Assembly (NCBI GenBank): GCA_028688895.1
Contig: JAQTXG010000001.1
Span: 1-64,000, forward strand
Reading direction: 5' to 3'
Origin: Candidatus Altimarinota bacterium
Lineage (GTDB): Bacteria > Patescibacteriota > Gracilibacteria > BD1-5 > UBA6164
DNA length: 64,000 nt
Shown: in pieces, positions 231-12,838 of the stretch
Layout of the letters: each line of letters starts with the position of its first letter
Position numbering within the stretch: position 1 is the stretch's first letter
Made by a program: the position numbers and the translations under genes
The notes under the pieces: model-generated
What the model was told of the DNA's origin: nothing
Seen by the model: only the letters and a program-made list of their open reading frames with translations
The model's database searches: none

Positions 231-1040
231 ATGCAAGAAATTATTAATTGAATGCTTGTTTGGCAAGCTAGTTATACTGGGCTTTTGGTAGAAGTTATAT
301 TGATTTTTTTGATTTTTCTAAGTTACAAATTTGCTAAAAATGGTTGATTTTCTATCTTTTTTGAGCTGATTTTTGAAAAAGCATATGAGTTTTTTGAAGA
401 TATATTGTGAAAAGAAGAACAAAAGTGGATAAAAATGTATATTATTACTATGTTTTTCATTATATTGCTTTCAAATCTGACTTGAACTGTTTTAGATTTT
501 ATTATTCCTACATTATCTGAAACAAACAAAGAACACTTTGAACATTTTATAAAGATTCCATCTTCAGATATAAACTTCAACATAGCTATGGCTATTATAT
601 GAGTTTTGATAGTTATTATGGAACAATTTAAAACACTAGGTTTCACTAAAACTTTGTATGAATATTTTCCTATATTTTGAAAAAATTTGATACCATTTGA
701 AAAAGGGAAATTACCATTTTTAGTAGACAATTTAGTTTACTTAATAGTTAAGATCTTTGATATAGTTATTTCATTATTTTTATGAATTCTAGATGTAGTA
801 TGACATTTAGCAAAAATTATATCATTGTCATTCAGGTTGTTTTGAAATATGACATCTGGTTGATTATTACTAGCTATGTTATTTGCTGGATTGATATGAG
901 CTACTAGTTTTATAGGTTCAGGTTTTCCTATTATTGGACCAGTTATACTATATATGCAATGATTATTAGTTGCTTTGATACAAGCATTAGTATTTCCTTT
1001 GTTGATAGCTATATTTATAAAAGTAGCAAAAGTACACTAA
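231..1040 (+). CDS. atpB: F1F0 ATP synthase subunit a
   Basis: This 269-residue membrane protein is the stator subunit of F0 that carries the ion half-channels against the c ring. The C-terminal third contains SFRLFGNMTSGG, with the invariant Arg of helix 5, and ends in a long hydrophobic segment typical of the family. Length is normal for subunit a. It is first in the operon, 33 bp before the c subunit gene. Nine or more glycines are encoded by TGA, so the gene is unreadable in the standard code. No Shine-Dalgarno site precedes the ATG. The identity is very secure from motif and context. Confidence 0.97.
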
Positions 1041-1073: not shown

Positions 1074-3767
1074 ATGGAATTAGCAAATTTTATATGAGCA
1101 TGACTTGCAGTATGACTTGCAGGTATATGAGTTGCAATGTGACAATGATTTTTATCAAAAAGATCAGTTGAAATAATATGAAAGAATAAAGAGATGGCAT
1201 CTTTTTATCTGACAATTACGATTTTGTGAATGGCATTAGTTGAATCTGCTGTTATATATTGATTGATTATAGCATTTCAGATAATGGGTAATGATTCGAT
1301 TACTATGTCAGCATCTATATGAGCATGATTAGCAGTATGATTAGCTTGATTTTGAGCATGATACTGAGAATGAAAACTTATAGGTTGAGCTATTACAGCA
1401 ATAGATAGGAACCCAGAAATAAAGTGAAAGATAATGACTCTAATGGTTCTATTTGTAGCTTTAGTTGAATCAGCAGCTATATATTGATTAGTAGTAGCAT
1501 TCAAAATACTTTGAGCAGAAGATATGGATTCAAACGCTTTTATTTGAATGTGATGTGCAGTATGATTTGCATGATTATGAGTTTCTATTTGAGAATGACT
1601 ATTAGCTGAAAAATCTATGGAAGTCATATGAAAGAGACAAGATATGACAGCTTTCTTTCTGACATTGACTATATTATGAATAGCATTAGTTGAATCTGCT
1701 GCCATATATTGATTGATAGTAGCATTTCAATTATTTGCAAAAGAATGAATAAGTTTATGAGCATCAATTTGAACTTGATTATCTATATGATTGGCATGAT
1801 TGTGAGCTTGATTATGAGAATGAATACTAGTATGATGAGCTATAAAATCGATAGACAAAAATCCAGAAATGAAATGAAAAATAATGACACTAATGGTATT
1901 GTTTGTAGCACTAGTAGAATCAGCAGCTATATATTGATTGGTAATCTCGTTTAAAATTTTATGAATGACTGATTTTACATCTATGTCATTTATATGAATG
2001 TGATTAGCTGTTTGATTGGCATGATTATGAGTATCTATATGAGAATGAATAGCAGCAGAAAAATCATTGATAGCGATTTGAAAAAGACCTGAAATGTTAT
2101 GATTTTTTCTAACAGTAACTATTTTATGAATAGCCTTGGTAGAATCAGCAGCTATCTATTGATTAATAGTCGCATTTCAATTATTCTGAACTGATTCTAT
2201 TAGTTTGATAGCAGCAGCTTGAGCATGATTAGCTATATGATTGGCATGATTATGAGCATGAGCATGAGAATGAATATTGGTATGATGAGCAATCTCTGCT
2301 ATGGAAACAAATCCAGAAGCAAAGTGAAAAATAATGACATTAATGGTATTATTTGTAGCACTTGTAGAATCAGCAGCTATATATTGATTGGTAATTGCTT
2401 TCAAAATCATCTGAATGGATGACTTCACTTCTATGGCATTTCTATGAATGTGATTTGCTATATGATTTGCATGATTATGAGTATCTATATGAGAATGAAT
2501 AGCAGCAGAGAAATCACTACTTGCTATATGAAGAAAACCAGATATGACATGATTTTTCTTAACAGTAACTATTCTATGAATAGCTTTGGTCGAATCAGCA
2601 GCCATATATTGATTAATAGTTGCATTTCAATTAATTGTAAAAGATTGAATTAGTATGGTAGCAGCAGCTTGAGCATGATTAGCTATATGATTAGCTTGAT
2701 TATGAGCATGAGTATGAGAATGAATTCTTGTATGATGAGCTATTAAGGCTATGGAAAAAAATCCAGAAGTAAAATGAAAAATAATGACTCTTATGGTACT
2801 ATTTGTAGCACTAGTAGAATCAGCAGCTATATATTGACTAGTTATTTCATTTAAAATCCTATGAATGGATGACTTCACTTCTATGGCATTTCTATGAATG
2901 TGATTTGCTATATGATTTGCATGATTGTGAGTATCTATATGAGAATGAATAGCAGCAGAAAAATCATTGGAATCTATTTGAATGAGACCGAAAATGACAT
3001 GATTTTTCCTAACAGTAACTATTCTATGAATAGCCTTGGTAGAATCAGCAGCTATATATTGATTAATAATATCATTTCAATTGTTTTGAAATGATACGAT
3101 TAGTTTAGCAGCAGCAGCTTGAACTTGATTGGCTATATGATTAGCTTGATTGTGAGCATGAGTATGAGAATGAGTACTAGTATGATGAGCAATAAACGCT
3201 ATGGCTAGAAATCCAGAAATCAAAAACAAACTACTTACACTTATGGTATTGTTTGTAGCTTTGGTAGAATCAGCAGCAATATATTGATTGGTAATATCAT
3301 TTAATATACTTTGATTAACAGATACTACTTCAACAGCATATACATGAATGTGATTAGCTATATGATTGGCATGATTATGAGTATCTATTTGAGAATGATA
3401 TCTAGCTAAATGATCACTTGAAGTAATATGAAAAAACCCTAAAGCATTTGGTTTCTTTCTTACTATTACAATATTATGAATAGCCCTAATCGAATCAGCA
3501 GCAATATATTGATTGATAATAGCATTCCAAATCTGATCACTTGATTGATTTTCTTGAATGTTATCTATGACAGCTTGATTTGCTATATGATTAGCATGAT
3601 TATGAGCTTGAGTATGAGAATGATTGTTGATCAAATGAGCTATAGATTGAATGAATATAGCACCAGAATCTAGATGAAAAACTCTTACACTTATGGTACT
3701 ATTCGTTGCATTGGTAGAAGTAGTTGCTATTTATTGATTGATAGTAGCATTTAAAGTATTATGATAA
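1074..3767 (+). CDS. atpE: Giant F-type c subunit: twelve covalently linked hairpins
   Basis: The 897-residue protein sits exactly where atpE belongs, but a normal c subunit has 70-90 residues and one hairpin. Here twelve hairpins follow each other with an exact 75-residue period. The helix-2 carboxylate occurs at E57, E132, E207, E282 and so on to E882, in the motif ALVESAAIYGL. Helix 1 carries GxGxGEG 33 residues earlier (E99, E174 and onward), except the first hairpin, which has Q24. Two types alternate: odd hairpins have an AEKSxxxIGKRP-like loop with a FFLTxTILG helix 2, and even hairpins have GGAIxxxxxNPExKGK with TLMVLFVALVE. The E-33-E spacing plus Ser and Tyr after the second Glu resembles the two-carboxylate Na+ site known from Fusobacterium c rings. 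I infer that one chain forms a whole c12 ring. The known parallel is the 13-hairpin archaeal K subunit of Methanopyrus. Both ends of the ORF are clean. Confidence 0.96.
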
Positions 3768-3789: not shown

Positions 3790-4263
3790 ATGGATGATTT
3801 AAATGTAAGTATTATAATTGCACAAATTATAAACTTTTGAATTGTATTCTTTATATTTTATCACTTTTTATGAAAAACTATAGTAAAAACGATAGAAGAT
3901 AGAAGAAACAAAATGGAAAATCTAGATAAATCTGATGAAGTTGTAAAATCTATATTAGAAGCAGCAAACAAAGAAGCAGAAATGATTTTAAGAAATTCTA
4001 GAAAAGAAGCACAAGAAATACAAGAAAATGCAGAAGTAATTTCTAAAAAAGCTACAGCTCAAAAATTGGAAGAGGCTGAAAGAAAAGCTCAATCTATATT
4101 AGAGTGAGCACAAAGAGATATAGAAAAAGAAAAATTGTGAATGATTGATTCTATGAAACAAAAAGTACTTGATTTATCATTAAAAATAAACTCAAAAGTA
4201 TTTGATAACAAAGATTCAAATAAAGAATTTATTACAAAAGAGGTTAATTCTATAAAAATATAA
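3790..4263 (+). CDS. atpF: F1F0 ATP synthase subunit b
   Basis: The 157-residue protein has one N-terminal membrane segment (residues 7-29, IIIAQIINFGIVFFIFYHFL) followed by a long charged helix rich in Glu, Lys, Ala and Gln. That is the classic b-subunit peripheral stalk, which holds F1 against the rotor. It follows the c subunit by 22 bp and precedes the delta-like gene by 3 bp, so translation is probably coupled. The length matches the usual 155-170 residues. Only this one b-type gene is seen, so a homodimer is likely. Confidence 0.93.
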
Positions 4264-4266
4264 TTT

Positions 4267-4614
4267 ATGAATACAATAGAAAATTTAAACAAGGTAGAAT
4301 TAGAATTACTTTTGAAAAATTTAAGATTTTATAAAGATGTAGTAAAAAAACTTTGAGACAGATGAAAAAAAGTATATGACCATGTATTTAATTGAAAAAA
4401 TGAATATGTAGTAGAATATTACGGAGATTTGGACAAAGAATACATTTTAAATGAATCAAAAGGTATTTATAAAAAAGTATTTAACTTGGAAGTGAATGAT
4501 TTAGATATAAAACTTATAAAAAACGAAAAAATCAAATGATGAATGAAAATTTATCTAAATGATAATCTAATAGATTTAAGTTTCTTGAAGTTTTATAACT
4601 TGTTAAACAAATAA
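4267..4614 (+). CDS. atpH: Short delta-like ATP synthase subunit
   Basis: This 115-residue protein occupies the position of the delta subunit between b and alpha. Its C-terminus, with IKGGMKIYLNDNLIDLS followed by a short helix, matches the delta/OSCP ending in which a Gly-Gly and an Asp-x-Ser lie before a final helix. The family is normally about 175-180 residues with an N-terminal helical bundle that binds the top of F1, and most of that bundle appears missing or unrecognisable. Either the subunit is strongly reduced or the N-terminal function lies elsewhere. The call relies on operon position plus this weak C-terminal match. Confidence 0.65.
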
Positions 4615-4769: not shown

Positions 4770-6275
4770 ATGGCTAACGATTTACTGAACAGTATAATTA
4801 GTGAAGTTGAGAAAAAATTAGATCAAGCTAGCATAAATCCAGAAGTAGAAAATGTATGAGAAGTTTTCTATTTGTGAGATGGTGTAGCAAAAGTATCTGG
4901 TCTTAGAAATGTTGCATACAACGAATTGGTAGAATTTGAATCAGGTTGAGTGTGAGTAGCATTAAACTTAGAAGAACACTATGTATGAGTAGTAGTACTT
5001 TCAGGTTTCAATGTGATTAAAGAATGAGAAAAAGTAAAAGCAGCAGGTAGAACTCTAGAAGTACCAGTTTGAAAATGATTAATAGGTAGAGTAGTAGATG
5101 CTTTAGGTAATCCTATAGATGGACTATGAGCAATCAATTCTACTGAAAAGTACCCTATAGAAAGAGTTGCTACATGAGTAATGGCTAGAAAATCTGTACA
5201 TGAACCAATGGAAACAGGTATAAAGGCGATAGACGCACTAGTACCAATTGGTAGAGGTCAAAGAGAATTGATTATCTGAGATAGACAAACAGGTAAAACA
5301 CAAGTTGCTATAGATACTATATTGAACCAAAAATGAGGAAATGTGTTTTGTATATATGTAGCTATCTGACAAAAGGAGTGAAAAGTTGCTAGAGTAGTAG
5401 AAGAACTTAGAAGTAGATGAGCTATGGATTACACTATTGTAGTTTCAGCTTGAGCTTCAGATCCAGCTTCTATGCAATACTTGGCTCCATATGCTGGTTG
5501 TGCTATGTGAGAATACTTCATGTTCAACGGTATGCATTCATTAATCATATATGATGATTTATCTAAACAAGCAAATGCATATAGAGAAATGTCATTATTA
5601 CTTAGAAGACCACCAGGAAGAGAAGCGTATCCTTGAGATGTATTTTATCTACACTCTAGATTATTAGAAAGAGCATCAAAATTAAATGATAAATTGTGAG
5701 CTTGATCTATGACAGCATTACCTATTATTGAAACTCAATGAGGTGATGTATCTGCATATGTACCTACAAATGTAATCTCAATTACAGATGGTCAAATATT
5801 CTTGGAATCTGATTTATTCAACTCAGGTCAAAAACCAGCGATCAATGTATGACTATCAGTTTCTAGAGTATGATGAGCTGCACAAATCAAAGCTATGAAA
5901 AAAGTATCAGGTACTTTGAAGCTTGATTTAGCTCAATACAGAGAGTTAGCAGCATTTTCTCAATTTGCATCTGACTTAGATCCTTCTACTAGAGCTCAAT
6001 TAGAAAGAGGTAAAAGAATGATGGAATTGTTGAAACAATGAGTATTTGAACCTGTATCTGTAGAAAAACAAGTATGTGCTATATATGCTTGAGCAAAATG
6101 ATTTTTAGATACTATAGATGTATCAAAAGTTAAAAAATTCGAACAAGATTTGTATATGACTTTAGAAGAAGAAAAAACTGTTTTAGAAATTATAAAACAT
6201 AAAAAAGAAATCACAGAAGAAGCAGAAACAAAATTAAAAGAAATAATTACTAAAGTAGTAGATATTAATAAATAG
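4770..6275 (+). CDS. atpA: F1 ATP synthase subunit alpha
   Basis: The 501-residue protein is the non-catalytic nucleotide-binding F1 subunit. The Walker A sequence GDRQTGKT lies at residues 170-177, and the beta-barrel, nucleotide-binding and C-terminal helical domains follow in normal order. Other family signatures include [16 protein letters not shown] and the SVSRVGGAAQ region. The length is normal. The gene is preceded by a palindromic repeat rather than a tight junction, yet lies inside the operon. Many structural glycines, including one in the P-loop strand, are encoded by TGA. Confidence 0.98.
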
Positions 6276-6407: not shown

Positions 6408-7307
6408 ATGGCAACTTGAAAAGAAATTAAAAGAAGAATAAAATCAATTAAAAATACTTCAAAAATAACTAAAGCTATGGAGCTTATTTCAACTGTAAAG
6501 ATGAAAAAAGCTCAAGACTTGGCTCTAGAAAAAAAAGAGTATATTAAATGAATCTTGGAAGTTTTGATGAATTTAAATTGAAATTTTTCAGACTCAAAAT
6601 ACTTCAAGAAAAACAACAATTCTTCTAAAACACTTTGAGTAATCGTTACTTCAAACAAATGATTATGTTGAGGTTACAACATCAATGTGATGAAAAAAGT
6701 AAATGAGTATATAAAATCAAATGGAAACAATATTGATTTTGTAACATTAGGTAAAAGATGAAGTCAGTTTATAGCTAGAACATGAAATAAAATAACAGCA
6801 GATTTTTCTGCATCATTTTCAGATAATATAGATTTAAGATTTTCTAAATCTGTATCTAGAATGATAACAGAAAAACTTACTTCATGAGAATATGGAAATG
6901 TAGTTGTATTTTACAACTACTATGTAAATACAATCAGACAAATACCTGTTTCTAGAGAATTTCTACCACTAACAGACACTAGTATCGAGAAATATTTTGG
7001 AATGGTATTATGATATGATTACAAATATACAGCAGATGATAGAAGATTGAACTATACGGTAGAACCAACAGTAGATGAATTGTTACAAGAAGTAATGCCT
7101 ATGCTGATAGATTCTATGTTTTACGATATATTGATTGAATCAAAAGCATCTGAACATAGTTCTAGAATGATAGCCATGAAAAATGCTAAAGACAATGCAA
7201 ATAAATATGCATCAAAACTTACATTGCAATACAATAAGGCTAGACAAGCAGCAATTACAAAAGAAGTTTCAGAAATAGTATCTTGAGTAGAATCTATGAA
7301 AGATTAA
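6408..7307 (+). CDS. atpG: F1 ATP synthase subunit gamma
   Basis: The 299-residue protein is the central rotor shaft. The N-terminal helix has the family pattern [20 protein letters not shown], and the C-terminal helix contains [21 protein letters not shown], the strongest gamma signature. The central Rossmann-like part includes VTSNKGLCGGYN. The length is normal. The shaft must dock onto a rotor ring that here is probably a single chain, so its foot region would be worth comparing with ordinary gamma subunits. Confidence 0.97.
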
Positions 7308-7432: not shown

Positions 7433-7551
7433 ATATTTGATTGTTTTAACTTAATAACATTGACACATTGAGGAGTTATAATCAAAAAAGTATTCTTTAC
7501 AAATTATTGATTTATTATACAATACAATTGTTTATTTAATAAGTGTATTTT

Positions 7552-7962
7552 ATGAAAAAGAAAATTAAGTTTTACAGGGTAGTATTAAATTCATTATTTT
7601 ATGTTTTTTATGTTTTAGTTATTTCGATTCTGTTTTCTTTTGTTTTCCCAATGATTTTGGTATTATTATGAAAACCAGTATTAGATCCATCTAGTCCAAT
7701 TTTTACAGTTATCCAAATACTTATATTAATCTTTGTATTTATATTGAGTTTATCATTTAGAAAATATTTATATTTACCAATATTTTCTGAAGAAGTAATT
7801 ATTGAAAAAAAAGAAAAAGTAAAAGAAGTAGAATCAAAACAAGAAACAATAAGTAAGTCAGAAAAAACAGAAGAATCAATTGAAATCAAATTGGAAGACG
7901 AAATAGTAAATGAAAATATAATGCCAGAACTTGATATAAAAATAGGTAAAGAAATAAAATAA
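7552..7962 (+). CDS. Unknown two-helix membrane protein within the atp operon
   Basis: I do not recognise this 136-residue protein. Two hydrophobic segments lie at about residues 11-40 and 50-68, followed by a highly charged tail of Glu, Lys, Ser and Ile that looks extended or coiled. It sits between gamma and beta, an unusual place for an extra gene. It lacks the four-helix plan of AtpI. An assembly factor or an extra stator element is possible from position, but this is inference only. The ATG follows a TTTTATG context without a Shine-Dalgarno site. Confidence 0.75.
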
Positions 7963-8060: not shown

Positions 8061-9455
<1,395 letters not shown>

Positions 9456-9588: not shown

Positions 9589-10020
9589 ATGAAAATAGAA
9601 ATATTATCATTTACATGAAACTTGTTTAAATCAGATAATGTAGAGTCAGTAACAGCAAATACAAAGATTTGAGAAATAACTATATTGGATGACCATACTC
9701 CTTTAGTTACTGTACTAAATCCAACTATTATAAGTATTGTATATACAAATGAAGCATGAGAAAAATCTGAGAAAGATTTTGCTGTTTGATGATGAGTATT
9801 AGAAGTTTCAAATTCAGCAGTGAAAATACTTATAGATATGTTGATTACTGTTGATACTTTAGATGTTGACCAAGCTGAGAAAGCTAAAAAAGAAGCACTA
9901 GAATTGATGGAAAAATACAAAGATGCAAAAGATAAAATTGATATGGAAAAATTTATCGAAGCAGAAGATATGTTATTAAAATCAGTTGTTCAATTAAAAT
10001 TATGAGATCTAAATAAATAA
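9589..10020 (+). CDS. atpC: F1 ATP synthase subunit epsilon
   Basis: The 143-residue protein has the N-terminal beta sandwich of epsilon, with GEITILDDHTPLVTVL near residues 27-43 and FAVGGGVLEVSNSAVKILID near 64-83. A C-terminal helical hairpin follows (about residues 92-140). It closes the operon and is followed by a terminator. In the family the C-terminal helices can inhibit ATP hydrolysis; whether that holds here is unknown. Confidence 0.93.
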
Positions 10021-10863: not shown

Positions 10864-12342
10864 ATGTTAGAATTAACTAAAATAAAACAAATAGACAATA
10901 ATGTATGATTTTTTAGATTTAAAAAATTTGATGAATCAACATATTTGATTACAAATGATATTTGAAAATATTGCTTTTTAGACAAATCAGATTTTTGAGA
11001 TTTTATATCAGGTAAATTAAATGCGTGAGATAAATACAATGAGTTATTACAAAAAAAATTCATCAAAAATAAGGACTATGAAACAGAAATGGCTAAATCA
11101 TTTGCTAAAAAAAATGAATTTTTGGCATATGGACCATCTCTTCATATAATTGTTACCACTCTTAGATGTAATCATAAATGTCAATACTGTCATGCAGCAG
11201 TAGCACCGATGACTGCCAAAAATATGGATATGACAAAAGAAACTGCTACAAAAGTAGTAGACGCTATTTTTTATACATCAAATCCAAATCTAACAATAGA
11301 ATTTCAATGATGAGAATCACTAGTAAATTGGGAAATAGTAAAATATATAATAGAATACTCAAATACAAAAGCACAGTATCTAAAGAAAAATGTAAACTAT
11401 GCTTTAGTTTCAAATTTGACTTTGATGGATGAAGAGAAATTACAATACTTGATAGAAAACAATGTATGAATTTCTACATCACTAGATTGAGATGAGGAAA
11501 CTCATAATTACAATAGAACATTCAAAGAATGAAATAGTTTCGAGCAAGTTACATATTGGATAAAGAGAATCAATGAAGAATACCAAAAAAGATGAATGGA
11601 TAATAGAGTATGAGCACTATTAACTGTAACCAAAAAAACACTTTCTAGATACAAAGAAACAATAGATACTTATGTAAACGTTTGATTAAATTCTATTTTT
11701 TTAAGACCATTAAATCCATATTGATTCGCTGCTGCAGATTTAGAGAAATTGTGATATTCACCAGAAGATTTCGAAAAATTTTACATCAATTCTATGGAAT
11801 ATATATTAGAATTAAACAAAAAATGAACTATATTTAGAGAGTCACTTAGTTCAATTTATTTATCAAAAATATTATCTGAAACAGATCCAAATTATTTAGA
11901 TGAAAGAAGTCCTTGTGGAGCTTGTATATGACAAGTAGCCTACAATTTTGATTGAAAAATATATAGTTGTGATGAATGAAGAATGCTAGGTAGAATGTGA
12001 GATGAAAATTTTTTGATGACTACAGTTGCTGATACTGGTGAAGAAACATACAAAAATATGATTCAGTCAGAAACAACCAAGATTATGGTACAAGCTTCTA
12101 CTTTGGACTGATTACCTTGATACAATGATAGTGTTTACAAACCATACATATGAGTTTGTCCTATTCATTCTTATAAAACTAGTGGTAATATAATACCAAA
12201 TTATTCAAAAGACCACAAAAAAATACTTGATTTTGCAGTACTTGATTATTTATTTAAAAAATTGAGAAATGATACTGATAAAGTTGTTTTTGAAGAATGG
12301 ATTTGAATGAACCGTGAACCAATTTTATGTAATATAATTTAA
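10864..12342 (+). CDS. hxsB: His-Xaa-Ser system radical SAM maturase HxsB
   Basis: The 492-residue protein begins with an HxsB-like N-terminus (FFRFKKFDESTYLITNDIGKY). The radical SAM cluster motif CNHKCQYC has cysteines at 102, 106 and 109, and a GGES segment follows. The C-terminal auxiliary-cluster region has SPCGACIGQ (C351, C354), IYSCDEGRMLG (C369) and a later Cys at 432. HxsB enzymes are thought to modify HxsA peptides by radical chemistry. It stands 3 bp after the small HxsD-like gene and 61 bp before the precursor gene. A separate HxsC has not been recognised. Confidence 0.85.
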
Positions 12343-12403
12343 TATTTGTAAAAACAAGATATTTGTTTAAAATATTATTAATTTAAAATTAAACTTTATC
12401 AAA

Positions 12404-12838
12404 ATGGATAATAAAAAAAAGTTTTTCCCAAAGTTGAAAAAGAAAATTAAAGGTTTTTTGACTGATGAATCATGAAAAATCACAAAAAAAGATGCACTAG
12501 CATTAAGTGTATGAGCTGTATTACTTAGTTGAGCAGAATATGTTTCTGCAGCTCACACTAGCTCATTGTACTATACATGACATGGTAATTGATATATAAA
12601 TTGATGACATGCAAGTTGATATTCAGTCTGATGACATCAGAGTTGAACAAGAACTGCTCATTCTAGTGGTATAGTAAACTGACATAGTAGTGGTACTCCA
12701 AATGCTTGACATATTAGTTGATATCCATTAACTTGACATACTAATTGATTAGTAAATGGATGACATACCAGTAGAGACACTTATTGACATTCAAGTCATG
12801 GATCTCATTGAAGTCATGGGTCACATTGAAGTTATTAA
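12404..12838 (+). CDS. hxsA: His-Xaa-Ser repeat precursor peptide HxsA
   Basis: The 144-residue protein has a lysine-rich start, a hydrophobic stretch ending in EYVSAA at about residue 49, and a low-complexity core of Gly-His-x-Ser/Asn-Gly units. Units include GHASG, GHQSG, AHSSG, GHSSG, GHISG, GHTNG and GHTSR. It ends in four further His-(x)-Ser-type steps, GHSSHGSHGSHGSHGSY. About twelve histidines are spaced for repeated modification. This is the expected substrate of HxsB. The hydrophobic stretch suggests export, so the product may be a modified surface or secreted polypeptide. Most core glycines are TGA codons. A strong hairpin follows immediately. Confidence 0.85.

What the first reader, a model, noticed from the sequence alone, without database searches (positions are those of the whole stretch)
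1074..3767. A complete c12 rotor ring apparently encoded as one polypeptide
The c subunit gene of this F-type operon encodes 897 residues: twelve hairpins with an exact 75-residue period and the ion-binding Glu at 57 + 75n in every one. Bacterial F-type c subunits normally have one hairpin and assemble as 8-17 separate copies. Two- and three-hairpin forms are known in some bacteria and archaea, and a 13-hairpin form in the archaeon Methanopyrus, but I know of no described F-type bacterial ring fused to this extent. The stoichiometry would be fixed at 12 ions per turn, about 4 per ATP.
Basis: partly seen in the sequence, partly recalled or inferred. Interest (0 to 1): 0.95.

Follow-up and report, generated by a model that had tools for sequence, protein, structure and literature searches.

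The report
Whole ATP-synthase rotor in one protein
In this uncultured bacterium (Gracilibacteria) the turning ring of ATP synthase, normally built from 8-17 separate small proteins, is encoded as one long protein holding twelve copies end to end; relatives carry fusions of 2, 4, 6, 10 or 12, a natural series for asking how the size and ion count of this ring are fixed.

Summary
ORF 1074-3767 (TGA = Gly) encodes 897 residues: twelve c-subunit hairpins, exact 75-residue period, Glu at 57+75n in all. It lies in an F-type operon and is the only c gene, beside the only a gene, found in the genome. Its longest internal exact repeat is 65 bp, so the count is resolvable with short reads; a same-genus genome also has 12.

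Among 48 genomes of the family I found a graded series: c1, c2, c4, c6, c6+c6, c10 (one genome) and c12 (six). Class and phylum samples showed nothing comparable outside the family.

Covariation supports ring closure. A non-Ser/Thr residue 58 in hairpin k is never followed by Glu24 in hairpin k+1 (0 of 15), and the last hairpin pairs with the first by the same rule (22 of 22), as expected if they touch.

Eleven of twelve sites match the two-carboxylate Na+ motif; the seam site (Q24/E57/V58) is incomplete, so '12 ions per turn' is an upper bound. That one chain is one closed ring remains inferred.

New variant of a known kind: a natural single-chain F-type rotor. The precedents found are the archaeal A-type enzyme of Methanopyrus and an engineered c10.

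The parts
231..1040 (+). ATP synthase subunit a (269 aa), the only one found in the genome; stator Arg202 invariant in 13 relatives
   Evidence: PF00119 E 5e-28
1074..3767 (+). c12: twelve fused c-subunit hairpins, 897 aa, alternating A and B types
1143..1145 (+). seam residue: Gln24 of hairpin 1 (Glu at this place in hairpins 2-12)
3720..3722 (+). seam residue: Val883 of hairpin 12 (Ser at this place in hairpins 1-11)
3790..4263 (+). subunit b (157 aa)
   Evidence: PF00430 E 5.4e-20
4267..4614 (+). short subunit delta (115 aa), apparently without the usual N-terminal domain
   Evidence: no Pfam or NCBIfam hit; AF2 model whose best Foldseek hits are delta/OSCP chains
4770..6275 (+). subunit alpha
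   Evidence: TIGR00962 800 bits, over cut-off
6408..7307 (+). subunit gamma
   Evidence: TIGR01146 252 bits, over cut-off
7543..7962 (+). 139-aa membrane protein of unknown function between gamma and beta, kept in most of the family
8061..9455 (+). subunit beta
   Evidence: TIGR01039 800 bits, over cut-off
9589..10020 (+). subunit epsilon
   Evidence: TIGR01216 83 bits, over cut-off

Best explanation
The gene encodes the entire c12 rotor ring of an F1FO ATP synthase/ATPase as one polypeptide. The twelve hairpins insert side by side and the chain closes so that hairpin 12 packs against hairpin 1; gamma and epsilon dock on this covalent ring, which turns against the single a subunit. Each ion site lies between neighbours: E/Q24 and E57 of hairpin k+1 with S58 of hairpin k. 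Eleven sites carry the two-carboxylate Na+ ligand set; the closing site Q24-E57-V58 is degenerate, so 11-12 ions pass per turn (about 3.7-4 per ATP), most likely Na+. The array grew from a two-hairpin (A/B) ancestor by tandem duplication. Shown: one open frame, twelve sites, F-type operon, no second c gene found, relatives with 2/4/6/10/12 hairpins, covariation. Inferred: one chain = one ring, closure, coupling ion, ions per turn.
For: One 897-aa frame, twelve PF00137 stretches, Glu in all. F-type alpha, beta, gamma, epsilon over curated cut-offs. Only c gene and only a gene found in a 91.8 % complete genome. Twelve hairpins also in five further genomes, three of them without repeats long enough to mislead assembly, in two kinds of array that differ in place and descent. 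Covariation of 58(k) with 24(k+1): non-Ser/Thr is followed by Glu 0 times and by Gln/Arg 15 times; the last-to-first pair follows it in 22/22, 7/7 for c10/c12, matching the inter-subunit Na+ site solved in F. nucleatum (PMC3692424). AF2 pLDDT 90.1, pTM 0.92 for the chain, adjacent hairpins superposing on two-hairpin c chains of solved rings at 2.0-2.5 A. Engineered precedent: a fused c10 ring works (PMC8809890). dN/dS about 0.22.
Against: No protein or structure data. G053 has ten hairpins, so 12 is not universal. The seam pair could simply be inherited from the two-hairpin ancestor, and the covariation counts are not corrected for shared descent. Thr67 of known Na+ rings is Ala here. About 8 % of the genome is missing.
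Confidence: 0.82

Rival explanations
1. Polyprotein: the chain is made in one piece but cut by a protease into one- or two-hairpin subunits, which then assemble in the usual way.
For: Hairpins are complete and joined by short loops; one- and two-hairpin c genes exist in relatives.
Against: First and last hairpins differ from the internal ones in a conserved way (Q24 first, V58 last, 7/7 in c10/c12), and Val58 is always followed by Gln/Arg in the next hairpin of the same chain, which free shuffling of cut pieces would not preserve. No shared linker motif was noticed in the alignment.
Confidence: 0.07
2. The ring holds another number of hairpins: the chain forms part of a larger or mixed ring, or leaves some hairpins out.
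For: A ten-hairpin relative exists; some relatives carry two fused c genes (c6+c6, c4+c4, c12+c2) that could mix.
Against: The window has one c gene only; two chains would give 24 hairpins, against 8-17 per known ring (range quoted in PMC8809890); twelve recurs in two array kinds.
Confidence: 0.06
3. Assembly artefact: the true gene has another number of units or is split.
For: Metagenome assembly with a tandem array; G054 has a 599-bp exact repeat in its array.
Against: Longest exact repeat in the window's gene is 65 bp; units differ by 11-51 % within each type; G001, G006, G014 and G018 give 12 independently.
Confidence: 0.04
4. Single-chain ring as above, but coupled to H+ rather than Na+.
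For: Thr67 of known Na+ rings is Ala here; similar departures made the authors of the Vampirococcus genome favour H+ (PMC8080830).
Against: E/Q24, E57, S58 and Y62 with the 33-residue spacing of E32/E65 in 11 of 12 sites, whereas single-hairpin c of the same family has the H+ pattern IGIG...AEA.
Confidence: 0.25

Closest known systems
[quoted passage not shown] Lolkema and Boekema 2003, as cited in PMC2359735)
   Same: A whole rotor deduced to be one chain; each hairpin keeps its own ion site of Na+ type
   Different: Archaeal A-type enzyme, 13 hairpins; here bacterial F-type, 12 hairpins of two alternating kinds, with a marked seam, and relatives of many lengths
Engineered single-chain c10 ring of Bacillus PS3 (Mitome et al., PMC8809890)
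   Same: F-type c hairpins joined into one working chain
   Different: Man-made, identical H+ hairpins with Gly-Ser-Ala-Gly linkers; here natural, diverged hairpins
Fusobacterium nucleatum c11 ring with two-carboxylate Na+ site (PMC3692424, PDB 3zk1)
   Same: E32/E65/S66/Y70 ligand set at the same spacing
   Different: Separate single-hairpin subunits; Thr67 present there, Ala here
Acetobacterium woodii c1 two-hairpin subunit (PDB 4bem_J)
   Same: Best solved sequence and Foldseek match; fused hairpins in a bacterial F-type ring
   Different: Two hairpins per chain mixed with single-hairpin subunits (9 of 10 chains in 4bem)
V-type K/c proteolipids (Enterococcus hirae 2bl2, yeast Vo)
   Same: Adjacent fused hairpins with the same packing
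   Different: Two hairpins share one ion site; here every hairpin keeps Glu57, though some relatives have degenerate sites

Membership tests
F-type ATP synthase c subunit (PF00137) | Hairpin fold matching ATP-synt_C | tested here: met
   12 stretches, E 1.1e-154; AF2 helical hairpins
F-type ATP synthase c subunit (PF00137) | Carboxylate in the second helix | tested here: met
   Glu at 57+75n in 12/12
F-type ATP synthase c subunit (PF00137) | Encoded with F-type subunits a, b, delta, alpha, gamma, beta, epsilon | tested here: met
   delta only by structure
F-type ATP synthase c subunit (PF00137) | Ring built of several separate copies | tested here: inconclusive
   Twelve hairpins in one frame and no other c gene found; actual ring not observed
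Two-carboxylate Na+ rotor (F. nucleatum type) | Glu32, Glu65, Ser66, Tyr70 | tested here: met
   11 of 12 sites; seam site is Q-E-V
Two-carboxylate Na+ rotor (F. nucleatum type) | Thr67 holding the bound water | tested here: not met
   Ala (or Val in hairpin 12) in all hairpins
Two-carboxylate Na+ rotor (F. nucleatum type) | Measured Na+ binding or coupling | not testable with these tools
   needs biochemistry
Single-chain rotor (Methanopyrus K) | Whole ring on one chain, one site per hairpin | tested here: inconclusive
   Sequence agrees; ring not observed
Single-chain rotor (Methanopyrus K) | A-type operon | tested here: not met
   alpha and beta are F-type
V-type K/c proteolipid | Two hairpins share one carboxylate | tested here: not met
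   Glu57 in every hairpin

The most novel reading that the evidence does not exclude
Gracilibacteria build F-type rotors of about twelve hairpins from chains of 1, 2, 4, 6 or 12, and fusion lets each ion site be set separately: complete sites range from 6 of 12 (G014; also 3 of 6 and 1 of 2 in some c6 and c2 chains) to 11 of 12 (window, G001, G018), with one degenerate seam site in every c10/c12 chain. The ions-per-ATP gear would then be tuned by point changes inside a ring of fixed size, rather than by changing ring size.
Probability: 0.4. Interest if true: 0.92.

Novelty: new variant of a known kind. Interest (0 to 1): 0.87.

Why it matters
How c-ring size is fixed is a long-standing question, because it sets the ion cost of ATP. 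A rotor made as one chain fixes that number in the gene, removes ring assembly from separate subunits, and makes every position separately mutable. The family holds forms of 1, 2, 4, 6, 10 and 12 hairpins, four of them within the window's own genus, so it is a natural experiment on rotor size and on how many working sites a ring needs. It also gives CPR bacteria, whose use of the ATP synthase is debated (PMC8080830, PMC6851277), a probably Na+-coupled enzyme.

Tried and rejected
A scan of genome contigs with the c12 protein found nothing, probably because its patterns and tblastn step use the standard code; a scan with a gamma alignment worked. Fold search with the 897-residue model lists designed helical repeats at high Z with rmsd 5-9 A; set aside as generic. 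Closure could not be read from the model because coordinates are not released. The simple rule that hairpin numbers always divide 12 was dropped because of the ten-hairpin gene of G053. Standard-code reading was rejected. A membrane pyrophosphatase as a possible ion source was sought and not found; three Na+/H+ exchanger genes were. The eight-hairpin frame of G057 was left out: it runs off its contig and two A-type hairpins adjoin.

Full report
OBSERVATION. Read with TGA = Gly, 1074-3767 is a single frame of 897 codons and a stop. Cut into 75-residue units it gives twelve hairpins; Glu is at 57+75n in all twelve, Glu at 24+75n in eleven and Gln in the first. Hairpins alternate between two types: unlike types share 39-51 % of residues, like types 49-89 %. 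Pfam finds twelve ATP-synt_C stretches, E 1.1e-154. TGA positions of alpha, gamma and beta are Gly in 104 of about 131 aligned letters of TGA-free relatives; in the c gene 146 of 150 Gly codons are TGA. The longest exact direct repeat in the gene is 65 bp, so the count does not depend on repeat resolution, and the same-genus genome G001 also has twelve. Between these two dN/dS is about 0.22.

CONTEXT. The operon is a - c12 - b - short delta - alpha - gamma - 139-aa membrane protein - beta - epsilon. Alpha, beta, gamma and epsilon pass NCBIfam cut-offs for F-type subunits; a and b match PF00119 and PF00430. The a subunit keeps the stator Arg (Arg202, invariant in 13 sequences). In the whole genome (1.8 Mb, 57 contigs, 91.8 % complete) the only c hairpins found are these twelve and the only a subunit is this one.

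RELATIVES. The family (48 genomes held) was searched and the c loci read as frames. Complete frames hold 12 hairpins in G000 (window), G001, G006, G014, G018 and G054; 10 in G053; 6 in G003, G009 and, as two genes each, in G007, G055 and G056; 4 in G020, G022 and, as two genes, in the one-contig genome G021 (same length as CP042461.1, 28_42_T64); the other loci read hold 2 or 1. The window's genus alone contains c1, c2, c6 and c12. In 288 genomes of the class none outside this family had more than four PF00137 hits, and in 116 of the phylum none outside it had more than three. Two-hairpin Na+-type F-type c genes also occur in another TGA-using family of the class. G054 (599 bp) and G001 (192 bp) have long internal exact repeats, so their counts are less certain; G000, G006, G014 and G018 do not.

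RING CLOSURE. In the solved F. nucleatum ring the Na+ site is made of Glu32 and Glu65 of one subunit with Ser66 and the Val63 carbonyl of its neighbour (PMC3692424). Here the equivalents are 24, 57, 58 and 55. Within chains, Ser/Thr58 of hairpin k is followed by Glu24 in hairpin k+1 in 120 cases and by another residue in 8; a non-Ser/Thr58 (Val or Ala) is never followed by Glu (0) and is followed by Gln or Arg in 15 (Fisher p 6e-15, not corrected for descent). The same rule joins the last hairpin to the first: 22 such ends all face Gln24 of hairpin 1, and all seven c10/c12 chains are Val-Gln. This is expected if the last hairpin touches the first, in the same chain or in the next copy. An end pair inherited from the two-hairpin ancestor is the main alternative. 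The opposite pairing, 58(k+1) with 24(k), breaks the rule eight times.

SITES. Counting E/Q24, E57 and a neighbouring S/T58 as complete, the window has 11 of 12 sites, the seam being Q-E-V; G001 11, G018 11, G054 10, G006 9, G014 6, G053 9 of 10. The c6 genes next to b have 3 or 4 of 6, the c6 genes upstream of a have 6 of 6, c4 2-3 of 4, c2 1 or 2 of 2. In G006, G014 and several c4/c6 chains Val58 is followed by Arg24, which would probably neutralise that Glu57 (inference). Single-hairpin c subunits of the same family have mostly Ile or Val at 24 and Ala at 58, the H+ pattern. Na+ coupling is therefore likely but not certain, as Thr67 of known Na+ rings is Ala here.

ORIGIN. In a tree of single hairpins the first hairpins of different genomes group together, so do most of the last ones, while internal ones tend to group within a genome or genus: arrays grew, or were homogenised, from the inside. 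Two kinds of array exist: one between a and b, and one upstream of a (G018 c12, the first c6 of G055/G056, a c4 of G021). Twelve was reached in both kinds; on an FO tree of the first kind there are at least three changes between 12 and not 12. The F1 tree interleaves forms of different length.

MODEL. AlphaFold2 with six c12 proteins gives pLDDT 90.1 and pTM 0.92, helical throughout with short loops. Foldseek's best matches are the two-hairpin A. woodii c1 (4bem_J) and V-type ring chains, adjacent hairpins superposing at 2.0-2.5 A over about 140-148 residues.

KNOWN. A 13-hairpin single-chain rotor was deduced for the archaeal A-type enzyme of Methanopyrus (PMC2359735), and a fused c10 of Bacillus PS3 was engineered and works (PMC8809890). 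From memory, not checked here: of the fused forms tried in 2004, only those whose number divides 10 worked. The passages retrieved from papers on Gracilibacteria and Vampirococcus mention the ATP synthase but not this; the ProAD survey grouped c subunits by hairpin number, and the passages read name no such case. Nine literature searches found no bacterial F-type ring of this extent; subscription journals and supplements could not be searched.

VERDICT. The gene is real, and on present evidence it encodes a natural single-chain F-type rotor. Still inferred: that one chain is one ring, that it closes, the coupling ion, and the number of working sites.

Noticed in passing
4267-4614: The delta subunit is only 115 aa (114-132 aa across the family) and seems to keep two short helices plus the C-terminal domain of F-type delta/OSCP, without the N-terminal domain that caps F1. 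In Bacillus PS3 removal of that domain, with delta fused to alpha, allowed extra peripheral stalks and a subunits (PMC12229609); with a ring of 12, divisible by 3, this would be worth testing.
   Followed up: partly
L075, L074, L079, L081, L082, L083, L054 (relatives): Several relatives carry two FO cassettes, a-c2-b of Na+ type and a-c1-b of H+ type, before a single F1 set, as if one F1 could be served by two FO parts with different ions.
   Followed up: no
L088, L089, L058, L061 (relatives): A second fused c gene (c6, c6, c12, c4) lies upstream of a in addition to the fused c between a and b; c6+c6 would add up to twelve in a mixed ring.
   Followed up: partly
7543-7962: A membrane protein of 139 aa without a Pfam family sits between gamma and beta; most of the family has one there, often ending in a pattern like DIKI-KEIK.
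   Followed up: no
10864-12838: A radical-SAM-like protein (492 aa, CxxxCxxC) is followed by a 144-aa Gly/His-rich repeat peptide, as in a peptide-modification cassette.
   Followed up: no
1074-3767: 146 of 150 Gly codons of the c gene are the reassigned TGA, a far higher share than in alpha (27 of 48) or beta (14 of 41).
   Followed up: no
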